Assembly: GCA_039962225.1 (NCBI GenBank)
Contig: JAMPKV010000003.1
Coordinates: 186,001-250,000, forward strand
From: Microcoleus sp. AS-A8
GTDB lineage: Bacteria; Cyanobacteriota; Cyanobacteriia; Cyanobacteriales; Coleofasciculaceae
DNA: 64,000 nucleotides
Reading direction: 5' to 3'
Made by a program: the position numbers and the translations under genes. The notes beneath the pieces were generated by a model. It was not told the DNA's origin and searched no databases. It saw nothing but the letters and a program-made list of their open reading frames with translations. Below, piece after piece: positions 18,413 through 36,065 of the stretch. Each line of letters begins with the position of its first letter. Position 1 is the first letter of the stretch.

Positions 18413-18444
18413 CGTAGGGGCATGGCATTGCCATGCCCCTGTAG
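18413..18444. repeat. GTAGGGGC palindromic repeat, intergenic copy
   Basis: CGTAGGGGCATGGCA and TGCCATGCCCCTGTAG form an imperfect palindrome. It belongs to the family with outer half-site GTAGGGGC found inside NRPS genes (32846-32873, 35117-35144). Here it lies just past the ferritin-like gene and may also act as its transcript end. Confidence 0.7.
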
Positions 18445-31538: not shown

Positions 31539-34500
31539 TTATAGAGAATTGATATTCGCTATCCGTGCCTGTTCAAGGCATACTTTGAGCTGGTTGGCAA
31601 GAATTTTAACATGGGGTTTTCTCAACATCGTTAGGTGATTACCAGGAACCTGATGAATTTCCACTTTTCCTCCAGCTAATTGACTCCAGCCTAAGCTTGA
31701 GTCTTGATCAGCCATACTAGACTGAACGCTTGTTTTTAGCAGAGTAATCGAGTTCGGATAAACTTGCGGCACATAGCTGAGAGTTGCTTGACTGTTAGCT
31801 TGGTAAATACGCAGCATCGGGCGAATGTTGAGTTCGCTCAATATCTGCTTTCTAGATGACTGAGGTAGGGTATTGGCTAAAACCGCTTCTCCCAAAATAG
31901 ACTGCCAAAATTGTTTGTTTCTCAACCTGTGAAGTAGCTTATTTATATTAGCCAAATGAAAGGGTAAATGATTAGCTTGGGGTTGGCTAGGAGTGGTTAT
32001 TAAATAGAAATAATCGAGTAAAAATGACCAAATATATCGCGCTGCGGCGGTGAACATAAATTTTAAACTATCCCCAAAATTAGGTAGATTACCGGGAATA
32101 GGTGCAAGCGTGTCAAATATAGCGAGTAGAGCCACTTGATGCCCTGCACTAAGGAGTTGTTGAGCCATTTCAAAAGCAACCAAACCTCCAAAAGACCAAC
32201 CTCCTAGAAAGTAAGGGCCAGACGGTTGAACCTGACGTAGCGCCTCGATGTAGTGAGCCGCCATCTCTTCAATGCGAGTGAATGGAGATTGTTTTCCATC
32301 CAATCCTAGGGGTTGCAGTCCATAAAAGGGTTGATCAAACCCCAACGAATAAGCCAATTCGTAATAAGGAAAGACAACACCGAGGATTGGATGAACACAG
32401 AAAAAGGGTGGCTTGGAGCCAGATGGTTGAATCGGAACTAAGGGCGACCAAGACAGAGAATCAGTTTGTTGCGCTAGAATCTTGGCTAAACCTTCAACCG
32501 TTGGATTTAAGAAGAGAGTTGATAAGGGTATCTCCCGCTCAAACTGCTGATGAATTTGAGCCATAAGTCGCACGGCGAGGAGGGAATCACCTCCTACTTC
32601 AAAGAAGTTATCTTGAATTCCTACACGATCATAGTTCAGAAGCTTTGCCCAAATTTTTGCGATCGCTTCCTCTATGGGTGTACGAGGAGCCATGTAGTTT
32701 TCTGTTAGTTCGGTCTTATCTACATCAAAAACTTTTAGGTTACGACGGTCTACTTTTCCATTTGGCAAGTGCGGTAACGCGTCCAGCATTACAAAAGCTG
32801 AGGGAATCATGTACTCTGGCAGCTTCTCTTTTAAGAAACAGCCTAGTAAGGGGGCAAAGCCTTGCGCCCCTACCCTCATTAACTGCTCTTGGTTTGGGAC
32901 AATATAAGTTACTAGGCGCTTGTTACCTGATACGTCTTCTTTCGCCATCACAACCGCCTCTTTCACAACCGGATGTTGCTTCAGTCGCGCCTCAATTTCG
33001 CCCAACTCAATGCGAAAGCCACGAATTTTTACCTGTTGATCAATTCGACCTAAAAATTCAATGTTTCCATCCGGTTGATAACGTGCTAAATCCCCAGTTT
33101 TGTACAGACGTTCACTAGCAGACAATCGGCTATCACTATCAACAAAAGGATTAGAAATAAATGCCACAGCCGTTAATTCAGGTTGATTAAGATAACCCCG
33201 TGCCACTCCCTCACCGCCGATGTACAACTCTCCGGAAATACCAATCGGTACAGGTTTTAGGTGGGAATCTAAAATATAAACTTGTGTATTAGTAATGGGG
33301 CGACCTATTGATGGCTTCTCGCTGTCATCAGTCTCTGCGACAGTAGACCAAACCGTTGCTTCAGTTGGCCCGTAAGCATTGAAAAACTGACGATTGGAAG
33401 CCCAACATTTTACAATATCCATCGAGCAGGCTTCTCCGGCAGAAATAATTGTCTGTAGTGCCGGAAGTTCTGGTGCAGGTAGAACCGCCAACACCGATGG
33501 CGGCAGGGTGACGTGAGTAATGGCTTTATCACGCAGCAGATGGATCAGATTTTGTCCGGGTAAAAGAGATTCTTTCTGGGCTAAATAGAGTGTGGCTCCT
33601 GTTCCCAATGCCATGACAATTTCAAAGATTGAGGCATCGAAGCTCAGTGAGGCGAATTGTAAGATGCGGTTACTTGGCTGTAAGTTGAAAGTCTGAATTT
33701 GAGCTTCGGATAAATTGCACAATCCTCGATGTTCAATTAGAACGCCTTTGGGCTTTCCTGTGGAACCAGAGGTGTAGATGACATAAGCCAGATTTTCAGG
33801 TGTTACGCTTACGCTGCTGATTGGGTTTTCCTTATTCTGGGAAGCGATCGCATCTGCCTCTTTGTCCACACAAACTACAGACAAACCATGCTGGCGAGCG
33901 CTGCATTGGGTTCGATCCCCCCAACCCCCCTCATCCTCACTAAAGTCCTCGTATGAGCTTTGGCAGTCGCTCCGGTTAAAAAGAGGGGCTAAAACAGAAT
34001 GAGTTAGCAAAATGGATACTTGTGCGTCTTCAATCATGAAATGAAGTCGCTCTTGCGGATAAGTGGGATCTAAAGGGACATAGGCTCCACCCGCTTTAAG
34101 AATGCCCAACACTCCCACAATCATTTCCACAGAACGCTCTAAGCAGATACCGACTAAAACTTCTGCTTCTACCCCTAGTTTTTGCAGGTGATGTGCTAAT
34201 TGATTGCTGCGATGATTCAACTCACGGTAGGTTAGTTGTTGGTCTTCAAACACGAGAGCGAGCGCATCGGGTGTCTGCTCTACTTGCTGTTCAAACAACT
34301 GATGAAAGCACGACTTGATTGGGGATGGATTCGGATTGAAATCTACCAATAATTGATGCTGCTCCGCCTGGGTTAAAATGGGTAATTCACAAAGGCGTTG
34401 CTGAGGATTAACGATAATACCTTGTAGCAGCATTTGGAAATGTCCCAGCATCCGGGTAATGGTGGTGTCATCCCATAAATCGCGGCTGTAGATGATTTGT

Positions 34501-35726
34501 CCTCTCAAACCCTCCGGGGATTCCCACAGGTGGAACTCTAAGTCAAATTTAGCGCTGGGGCGATCGAAGTCCAGTGGCGAAAGGCTTAACCCAGGCAAGG
34601 CTAGTGCCTCAATCGGCGTGTTTTGCAGACTGAACACCACCTGGAACAAGGGATGATGGCTCAGGTTGCGCTCTGGATGCAGTTCCTCCACGAGCTTCTC
34701 AAAGGGTAAGTCTTGATGGGCATAGGCTCCTAATGCAACCTCCCGTACTCGATCTAGCAGTTCTAGGAATGTTGGATTACCTGATAAATCAGTACGCAGT
34801 ACCAAACTATTGACAAAAAAGCCAATTAACCATTCTATTTCGTGACGATTGCGATTGGCGATCGCAGAACCCACGACAATATCCTCTTGCTGGGTGTAGC
34901 GGTAGAGTAAAGTCTGAAATGCCGCTAAGAGTGTCATAAACAGAGTCACCCCATGGCGCTGCGAGAGTGCCTCTAGTTGCTCACTCAGACTTTTCGGCAA
35001 CTCTAGAAATTGCGTTGCCCCTCGGTAGGTTGGAGTCGCAGGGCGGGGGTAATCCGTGGGTAAATTCAGCAGGGGAAGATTGTCTAGTTGCTGCTTCCAG
35101 TAAGCTAGTTGCATCTGTAGGGGCGACTCATGAGTCGCCCCTACCCCTTGTAACCACTCGCGTTGCCAGTGGGCAAAGTCTGCATATTGGATGGGCAAAT
35201 CCGGCAGGGGCGATCGCTGGTTGTTGGCAAAAGCTGTGTAAAGTGTGCCGAGTTCCCGAAGTAGCACGCCAATCGACCAGCCATCGCAAATAATGTGGTG
35301 TAGATTCAGTAGGAGTATGTGTTCTGACGAGTCTACCTGTAGCAGCATGACTCGCAGTAAGGGTTCAGATGATAAATCGAAAGGATGCGATCGCGCCTCA
35401 GTCGCTATTCGTCGAATTTCAGTTTCCTGTTCCGCTGCTGGTAAAATCCGCAAATCTACCACTGGCAGGGGTAGGGTTAAGGCGGGAGCAATTACCTGAA
35501 CGAGTTGCTCTTCCAGCATCCTAAAGGTAGTACGCAACGCTTCATGGCGACGCACGATTTCGTTGAACGTTTGCTCTAGTGCAGCTAGGTTGAGCAAACC
35601 TGTCAGGCGAAGTGCAGCCGCAACGTTATAGAAGGGATTGCCTGGGAATAGGCGATCGAGAAACCACAACCTCTGCTGGGCAAAGGATGCAGGGAAGACG
35701 AAAACTTCTGCTTCTTCAGCTTTCAT
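31539..35726 (-). CDS. NRPS module C-A-PCP-TE, terminal; predicted aromatic residue
   Basis: I start at ATG 35726 (MKAEEAEVFVFPASFAQQ), which matches the other NRPS in the window; the longer frame uses a TTG. The product is 1395 residues. The C domain (about 10-450) has HHIICDGWS (His143-144, Asp148). The A domain (about 470-980) has YTSGSTGKPKG, FDASIF, NAYGPTEATVW and YKTGDLARY. The PCP has GGDSLLA (Ser1048). The TE has GWSFGG (Ser1178) and His1364. Reading the specificity positions by eye gives D-A-F-T-I-A-A-V-W-K, closest to Phe-type codes. A TE at the end marks it as the last module. Three repeat-derived insertions lie inside. Confidence 0.92.
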   Translation of the reverse strand: MKAEEAEVFVFPASFAQQRLWFLDRLFPGNPFYNVAAALRLTGLLNLAALEQTFNEIVRRHEALRTTFRMLEEQLVQVIAPALTLPLPVVDLRILPAAEQETEIRRIATEARSHPFDLSSEPLLRVMLLQVDSSEHILLLNLHHIICDGWSIGVLLRELGTLYTAFANNQRSPLPDLPIQYADFAHWQREWLQGVGATHESPLQMQLAYWKQQLDNLPLLNLPTDYPRPATPTYRGATQFLELPKSLSEQLEALSQRHGVTLFMTLLAAFQTLLYRYTQQEDIVVGSAIANRNRHEIEWLIGFFVNSLVLRTDLSGNPTFLELLDRVREVALGAYAHQDLPFEKLVEELHPERNLSHHPLFQVVFSLQNTPIEALALPGLSLSPLDFDRPSAKFDLEFHLWESPEGLRGQIIYSRDLWDDTTITRMLGHFQMLLQGIIVNPQQRLCELPILTQAEQHQLLVDFNPNPSPIKSCFHQLFEQQVEQTPDALALVFEDQQLTYRELNHRSNQLAHHLQKLGVEAEVLVGICLERSVEMIVGVLGILKAGGAYVPLDPTYPQERLHFMIEDAQVSILLTHSVLAPLFNRSDCQSSYEDFSEDEGGWGDRTQCSARQHGLSVVCVDKEADAIASQNKENPISSVSVTPENLAYVIYTSGSTGKPKGVLIEHRGLCNLSEAQIQTFNLQPSNRILQFASLSFDASIFEIVMALGTGATLYLAQKESLLPGQNLIHLLRDKAITHVTLPPSVLAVLPAPELPALQTIISAGEACSMDIVKCWASNRQFFNAYGPTEATVWSTVAETDDSEKPSIGRPITNTQVYILDSHLKPVPIGISGELYIGGEGVARGYLNQPELTAVAFISNPFVDSDSRLSASERLYKTGDLARYQPDGNIEFLGRIDQQVKIRGFRIELGEIEARLKQHPVVKEAVVMAKEDVSGNKRLVTYIVPNQEQLMRVGAQGFAPLLGCFLKEKLPEYMIPSAFVMLDALPHLPNGKVDRRNLKVFDVDKTELTENYMAPRTPIEEAIAKIWAKLLNYDRVGIQDNFFEVGGDSLLAVRLMAQIHQQFEREIPLSTLFLNPTVEGLAKILAQQTDSLSWSPLVPIQPSGSKPPFFCVHPILGVVFPYYELAYSLGFDQPFYGLQPLGLDGKQSPFTRIEEMAAHYIEALRQVQPSGPYFLGGWSFGGLVAFEMAQQLLSAGHQVALLAIFDTLAPIPGNLPNFGDSLKFMFTAAARYIWSFLLDYFYLITTPSQPQANHLPFHLANINKLLHRLRNKQFWQSILGEAVLANTLPQSSRKQILSELNIRPMLRIYQANSQATLSYVPQVYPNSITLLKTSVQSSMADQDSSLGWSQLAGGKVEIHQVPGNHLTMLRKPHVKILANQLKVCLEQARIANINSL
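32846..32873. repeat. GTAGGGGC-family palindrome, in frame inside NRPS
   Basis: GTAAGGGGGCAA and TTGCGCCCCTAC are near-inverted repeats. On the coding strand the element contributes VGAQGFAPLLG in the A-domain C-terminal subdomain, just before the conserved LKEKLPEYMIPSAFV. These residues have no counterpart in the other two NRPSs here. Confidence 0.75.
33911..33990. repeat. CCCCCCAACCCCCC-type element, in frame inside NRPS
   Basis: Bases TCGATCCCCCCAACCCCCC lead into about 50 bases that end TTAAAAAGAGGGGC. They resemble the widespread cyanobacterial repeat of that form. They add about 29 residues (FNRSDCQSSYEDFSEDEGGW and on to GDRTQ) between A-domain motifs A2 and A3 and split LAPLL from QHGLSVV. 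Confidence 0.7.
35117..35144. repeat. Perfect 28-bp palindrome, in frame inside NRPS C domain
   Basis: The half-site GTAGGGGCGACTCA is followed directly by its exact reverse complement, with no loop. On the coding strand it encodes VGATHESPLQ, an insert in the C domain between the WLQ and LAYWKQQL segments. The other two NRPS C domains lack it. Confidence 0.85.
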
Positions 35727-35736
35727 TTTGTTGCTC

Positions 35737-36065
35737 TTACTGTTCGGGAAGTGCCCCAACCCTAAAAACCTGTTCAGCAGTCAAGTTTAACTCTGGAAAC
35801 GCTGGCGACTCAATGCAATCAGTACCTCTAAACTGACTCACCTGGTACTCCTCCTCAACTAATGAGTAAACCGAGATAGTTGGTTGCTTGGGGTTGCCAA
35901 TAAATCGCCTACCGCCCAAACCCAGATAATCAACAATCCAGTATTCAGGAACACCAATTTCTTCATAATCTGCAACTTTGAGCAGGTAATCATCCCGCCA
36001 ATTGGTACTGACTACTTCTATTACTAAGGGGATTGACGCACCTTGAGTGGCTTCTGCTTTCCCAG
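35737..36065 (-). pseudogene. Decayed Uma2-family gene fragment
   Basis: A minus-strand frame ending at TAA 35737-35739 translates to PLVIEVVSTNWRDDYLLKVA, then DYEEIGVPEYWIVDYLGLGG, then RRFIGNPKQPTISVYSLVEE, and ends with FPELNLTAEQVFRV. This is the catalytic half of a Uma2 protein including the EVVSTNWRDDY motif. No start is found; further upstream homology shifts frame near 36060 and decays. The fragment ends 11 bases upstream of the NRPS start. Confidence 0.78.

What the first reader, a model, noticed from the sequence alone, without database searches (positions are those of the whole stretch)
35117..35144. Perfect 28-bp palindrome inserted in frame in an NRPS condensation domain
The half-site GTAGGGGCGACTCA and its exact reverse complement sit inside the C domain and encode VGATHESPLQ, absent from the two sibling C domains. 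An intergenic relative is at 18413 and another in-frame one at 32846. A palindrome that keeps the frame and lands in a surface linker looks like a mobile element selected for tolerance inside genes, analogous to the Rickettsia palindromic elements.
Basis: partly seen in the sequence, partly recalled or inferred. Interest (0 to 1): 0.8.

Follow-up and report, generated by a model that had tools for sequence, protein, structure and literature searches.

The report
Mobile palindrome inserted inside proteins
A 28-letter DNA palindrome has settled in frame inside a peptide-synthetase gene of a cyanobacterium, close copies sit in more than ten other unrelated genes of the same genome, and near-identical palindromes occur in bacteria of many phyla, so a tiny mobile sequence seems to add nearly the same ten-residue tag to protein loops again and again.

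Summary
In detail: 35117-35144 is a perfect 28-bp palindrome in frame in the condensation domain of an NRPS gene. Four orthologs, one of the same genus, lack it, so it was gained. It is not a clean insertion: about 10 nt are replaced (net +18 nt). A fifth ortholog (G006) carries almost the same palindrome at the same site.

At least 75 related hairpins are in the genome (lower bound). Those of the GTAGGGGCGA sub-type lie in large ORFs in 16 of 20 cases and encode VGATHxSPLQ-like peptides, 14 of 16 in one frame. The other sub-type is mostly intergenic, partly inside MITEs. Exact GTAGGGGCGAC...GTCGCCCCTAC palindromes occur in 118 stretches whose titles name about 20 phyla (scan truncated), some in frame in genes such as valyl-tRNA synthetase.

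Best reading: a short mobile palindrome of the GTAG-REP/SDR kind, kept where a protein loop tolerates it. It works like Rickettsia RPEs but is not a member. The mobilising enzyme is unknown; no REP-type transposase was found beside copies. New variant of a known kind.

The parts
35117..35144 (.). Perfect 28-bp palindrome, sub-type A, in frame in the NRPS C domain
   Evidence: absent from orthologs in G001, G004, G008, G021, nearly identical in G006
35115..35144 (-). 30-nt coding unit VGATHESPLQ (palindrome plus AG)
31539..35759 (-). Host gene: NRPS, C-A-PCP-TE, 1406 aa
   Evidence: Pfam
34347..35696 (-). Condensation domain, aa 22-471; the insert is a predicted loop between helices 192-204 and 213-225
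32846..32873 (.). Second, older, imperfect palindrome of the family, in frame (VGAQGFAPLL) in the AMP-binding_C domain
   Evidence: shared with G001, ten residues missing in G021
18414..18441 (.). Intergenic relative GTAGGGGCATGGCATTGCCATGCCCCTG

Best explanation
A very small mobile palindromic repeat (28-29 bp, ends GTAG/CTAC, a hairpin with hardly any loop) that spreads as dispersed copies and is kept inside genes where it leaves the frame open and falls in a tolerant loop or linker. Shown: dispersed related copies; paired changes that keep the hairpin; gain in the NRPS, CofG-like, M1-peptidase and FtsK-like genes relative to orthologs; a nearly constant peptide in one preferred frame. Inferred: that it moves as a hairpin-forming single strand, perhaps handled by a HUH (Y1/RAYT-like) nuclease acting in trans or by short-patch replacement, with about 10 nt of target lost in the three clearest cases; and that its stay in proteins is near-neutral.
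For: 23 exact GTAGGGGC-N2-30-GCCCCTAC hits against 0 for the reversed control; about 75 places with the covariance model. Inner pairs: 83% paired against 56% in shuffles, 32 two-sided changes, 0 of 500 shuffles as high. Empty orthologous sites. Sub-type A in ORFs of 130 aa or more in 12 of 16 sites against 7 of 62 for the rest, and 4 of 4 decayed copies in phase 0 of ORFs of 498-993 aa. Ten host ORFs of sub-type A have Pfam domains. Predicted loop in the C domain.
Against: No movement seen directly. No linked transposase. G006 has nearly the same palindrome at the same NRPS site, so a transferred tract is possible there. Net length differs among sites (+9, +15, +18, +30) and loops vary, so the replacement size is uncertain. 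For the Rieske oxidase the gain is not clear. In other phyla genes are avoided.
Confidence: 0.7

Rival explanations
1. Canonical GTAG REP moved by a RAYT of this genome.
For: GTAG ends, hairpin, dispersed copies; the genome has four Y1_Tnp matches.
Against: GTAG is paired with CTAC at the other end; no GTAGGGGC...GCCCCTAC hairpin in the four 4.5-5 kb Y1 loci, only one exact half-site, in L032; three of the four proteins resemble by motif subclasses listed without REP structures in PMC6006769, the fourth has a stop. No RAYT-like ORF in the 118 stretches from other phyla (phmmer with the four proteins).
Confidence: 0.2
2. At the NRPS site the palindrome came by homologous transfer of a short tract from a relative such as G006, not by transposition.
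For: G006 has a one-mismatch copy at the same site. Own against G001 falls to 0.69 in the 15-codon stretch beginning at aa 212, overall 0.90.
Against: Next to the element own and G006 are 0.75 and 0.79 identical, hardly above 0.73 overall. It would not explain copies in other genes.
Confidence: 0.25
3. Copies are relics of MITEs that carried the palindrome.
For: Palindromes sit in the middle of MITE-like units in G004 and in this genome.
Against: 0 of 19 in-gene sites have the MITE ends on both sides; 6 of 59 others do.
Confidence: 0.08
4. A functional regulatory hairpin under selection.
For: Strong RNA fold, -38.3 kcal/mol, z -4.5 for an 88-nt stretch; paired changes.
Against: Unrelated host genes and varied positions; orthologs lack it.
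Confidence: 0.05
5. Chance or assembly artefact.
For: Some copies in fragmented assemblies lie near contig ends.
Against: 0 control hits; most copies of this genome lie well inside contigs with different flanks; two records with strain names also hold the palindrome (L182, L223).
Confidence: 0.01

Closest known systems
GTAG-tagged REPs (Di Nocera et al. 2013, PMC3733652)
   Same: Short dispersed hairpins with GTAG, paired changes, known in cyanobacteria (GTAG-12, -15, -16), some inside ORFs of other species (abstract, sections 5 and 15, passages seen).
   Different: There the tag is unpaired and at one end; here GTAG pairs with CTAC. Consensus figures are not held, so identity with a named family could not be checked.
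Rickettsia palindromic elements (RPE)
   Same: Palindromes in frame inside unrelated protein genes.
   Different: RPEs of R. conorii end in CGTC (PMC3733652, passage seen); other host; these are shorter than RPE-1 (recalled).
Small dispersed repeats of filamentous cyanobacteria (Elhai et al. 2008; recalled, not held)
   Same: As recalled: 21-27 nt hairpins with compensatory changes, found in mini-transposons and heptamer repeats; similar settings here.
   Different: Sequence could not be compared; in this genome in-frame protein copies are the main setting of sub-type A.

Membership tests
GTAG REP | GTAG tetranucleotide at an end | tested here: met
   GTAG/CTAC ends
GTAG REP | Tag unpaired, at one end only | tested here: not met
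   GTAG pairs with CTAC in the symmetrical copies
GTAG REP | Hairpin kept by paired changes | tested here: met
GTAG REP | RAYT gene flanked by copies (not present in every species with REPs) | tested here: not met
   four Y1_Tnp loci of this genome without such hairpins
Rickettsia palindromic element | Palindrome in frame in protein genes | tested here: met
Rickettsia palindromic element | CGTC end | tested here: not met
   ends are GTAG/CTAC
Small dispersed repeat (SDR) | Sequence of one of the eight published families (number recalled) | not testable with these tools
   paper not held
MITE | Inverted repeats of an IS on both sides | tested here: not met
   0 of 19 in-gene sites, 6 of 59 others

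The most novel reading that the evidence does not exclude
One and the same 28-29 bp palindrome (arms GTAGGGGCGAC) is a self-standing mobile element shared across some 20 bacterial phyla, moving by short single-strand replacement of about 10 nt without a linked transposase, and acting as a recurrent source of a VGATxxSPLQ-like peptide in the loops of conserved proteins.
Probability: 0.25. Interest if true: 0.85.

Novelty: new variant of a known kind. Interest (0 to 1): 0.6.

Why it matters
It offers pairs of genes with and without a ten-residue mobile tag (NRPS, CofG-like, M1 peptidase, FtsK-like; Cas6 for the other sub-type), so how palindromes enter and survive inside proteins can be tested outside Rickettsia. 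The same palindrome in far-apart phyla, without an obvious transposase nearby, asks for a shared mobilising agent. For NRPS work it marks a C-domain loop that accepts foreign residues.

Tried and rejected
Chance or low complexity: rejected. RAYT linkage: sought in four Y1_Tnp loci and in ORFs of the stretches held then; two RAYT-like ORFs turned up, in L321 (2.4 kb from a palindrome) and L268, none in the 118 stretches from other phyla. One search used wrong frames for three of the four proteins and was repeated. Gene conversion from a G001 paralog as the cause of the empty G001 site: no matching tract in the stretch looked at. In one search the G006 row came from a wrong frame; the right reading is; the G004 and G008 rows end before the second element. 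Literature strings for arms and peptides gave only papers that look unrelated by title (20 of 995 and 9 of 9 listed). Rfam was not searched. The viral-contig copies were not followed.

Rows left out: C1:208533 (27-nt loop) and four 3-mismatch copies L101-L104 are not among the 78 classed sites; the four were classed apart. The split into sub-types A and B was made after seeing the data.

Full report
The window is part of an unnamed 7.75 Mb genome in 54 contigs (G000:C3:186001-250000).

Observation. At 35117-35144 lies GTAGGGGCGACTCATGAGTCGCCCCTAC, a perfect palindrome, in the NRPS gene 31539-35759 on the minus strand, a C-A-PCP-TE protein. It encodes VGATHESPLQ together with two following bases. 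Both sibling C domains in the window lack it.

Orthologs. G001 of the same genus (91% aa identity), G004 (84%), G008 (79%) and G021 (69%) have EVLET, EVLET, EVLED and EVLST at this place and no palindrome. Against G001 and G004 the ten bases GAAGTTCTAG are replaced by the 28, net +18 nt; another split of the alignment is possible. Against a simple story: G006 (76%) has GTAGGGGCAACTCATGAGTCGCCCCTAC at the same site. Next to the element own and G006 are 0.75 and 0.79 identical, 0.73 overall, which does not point to a tract from G006; own and G001 fall to 0.69 in the 15 codons from aa 212 on, 0.90 overall, so a tract from an unseen donor is not excluded. The second element is shared with G001 and missing from G021 by ten residues, so it is older.

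Structure. An AlphaFold2 model of the C domain (17 sequences, mean pLDDT 85.3) puts the insert in the loop between helices 192-204 and 213-225, pLDDT 68 for residues 201-210 and 86 for 211-220. Solved C domains 6p1j and 6oyf have a six-residue gap there; 5u89 has a loop of nearly the same length as ours.

Family in the genome. GTAGGGGC-N2-30-GCCCCTAC has 23 hits, the reversed control none. A covariance model from 20 elements (18 of those 23, and 2 from the mismatch search) finds 139 strand-wise matches at E<=1, by my count 75 places (150 of 2619 candidates scored). In the five inner pairs 83% of cells pair against 56% in shuffles, with 32 two-sided changes. Of 78 classed sites (75 from the model, one from the pattern, two from the window) 19 lie in ORFs of 130 aa or more: GTAGGGGCGA-like (A) 12 of 16, others (B) 7 of 62, Fisher p 1.4e-6; the split was made after seeing the data. 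Two of the 7 type B cases begin within the first five residues of an ORF and may be outside the gene. Random 28-mers in the same loci are in such ORFs in 2737 of 3600 draws (76%), so type A does not avoid genes here. Four further decayed type A copies are all in phase 0 of ORFs of 498-993 aa. Together 14 of 16 in-gene type A copies are in phase 0, two in phase 1; phase 2 would meet TAG (sequence).

Host genes. Type A, ten ORFs with Pfam domains: AAA/NACHT-like, exonuclease/FtsK-like fusion, radical SAM protein (two copies; CofG by my reading), WD40 protein (two copies), Rieske/amine oxidase, PMT-TPR, M1 peptidase with HEAT repeats, CHAT-TPR, a glycosyltransferase/TPS ORF cut by the locus end, and the NRPS. 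The ORFs of L101-L104 were not searched. Type B: Cas6, another CHAT-TPR protein and the second NRPS site, among others. In the FtsK-like, Rieske, M1 and PMT-TPR proteins the element lies outside the domain matches, between domains; at both NRPS sites, in Cas6, in the CHAT protein of L082 and in the AAA lid it lies inside a match.

More before/after pairs. CofG-like: 9 of 9 relatives looked at lack a GTAGGGGC palindrome there; in 7 of 9 the loop is six residues shorter (+18 nt in own), G001 has a different short repeat (GGHPQGGHPQ) at the same loop, four residues shorter, and G007 another, longer stretch. M1 peptidase: G001 (96%) and G003 are six residues shorter; 5 other relatives differ in length. 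FtsK-like: 0 of 6 spanning relatives have it; 4 of 6, among them G004 (82%), are three residues shorter. AAA protein: 7 of 8 homologs, all at 38-52% identity, are five residues shorter. Rieske: G001 has a similar, degraded stretch of equal length, three others are two residues shorter, so the gain is not clear. Cas6: own and G012 have different palindromes of this kind in the same loop, G001 another repeat there, the other eight sequences none of these.

MITEs. In G004, 12 and 13 copies of two palindrome variants sit in the middle of units of about 90 bp with ends like CAGGACTTACGCA/TGCGTAAGTCCTG; a third such unit is seen in this genome. Here 6 of 78 sites have both ends, none of them in ORFs of 130 aa or more, against 5 of 4000 random positions. 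So some intergenic copies ride in MITEs; the in-gene ones do not show this.

Other genomes. Bin labels can err. Cores are few: CGGCCG 24, GCATGC 23, CCGCCGG 17 of 119 palindromes, and flanks near random except T or C preferred just outside. 46 of 119 are in ORFs of 150 aa or more, 33 in phase 0 and 13 in phase 1 (p 0.005 against even), against 6008 of 7080 (85%) for random 28-mers. Of ten of these ORFs given to Pfam, six had domains: valyl-tRNA synthetase (element between tRNA-synt_1 and Anticodon_1), an iron-sulfur CCG-domain protein with two elements, a cyclase/AAA protein, a type ISP methylase, a membrane protein and a TPR protein; four had none and may be spurious. Of 20 genomes searched with the model, the window's own included, 15 have hits at E<=1e-4, G004 most (119 strand-wise). 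The exact type A pattern was in 1 of 37 genomes, the window's own; G001 has a near copy in phase 0 of a 1337-aa ORF.

Mechanism. A hairpin-forming single strand handled by a HUH nuclease is the likeliest class by analogy with REPs (established knowledge and PMC3733652), but no linked RAYT was found. Of the four Y1_Tnp matches, L018 and L020 resemble subclass 1.2 and L021 subclass 2.1 by motif, listed without REP structures as I read the table passage of PMC6006769; L019 has a stop. Net +18 nt against the nearest relatives without any repeat in three genes fits 10 nt replaced by 28; other in-frame values would be allowed, so it is a hint only. Retention is best explained by tolerant loops.

Literature seen: PMC3733652 (outline with abstract, sections 5 and 15, passages); PMC6006769, PMC3116915, PMC4390886 (passages only). 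Elhai 2008 and the first RPE papers are recalled. Searches for arm or peptide strings showed no paper on this repeat among those listed. That does not show that it is unpublished.

Noticed in passing
L272-L293: The type A palindrome pattern also occurs in 22 stretches of the viral contig collection.
   Followed up: no
L296-L329 (G004): MITE-like units of about 90 bp with ends CAGGACTTACGCA/TGCGTAAGTCCTG carry a GTAGGGGC palindrome in the middle.
   Followed up: partly
L383 (G001 Cas6), L339 (G001 CofG-like): Different short repeats sit in the same protein loops that hold the palindrome in the window genome.
   Followed up: partly
L086:2-3910: One ORF joins a glycosyltransferase and a TPS secretion domain across a palindrome read in phase 1.
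   Followed up: no
L085 (C10:180976), L102-L104: Several in-gene copies are followed by AGGAGTC-like or ES-coding stretches resembling heptamer repeats.
   Followed up: no
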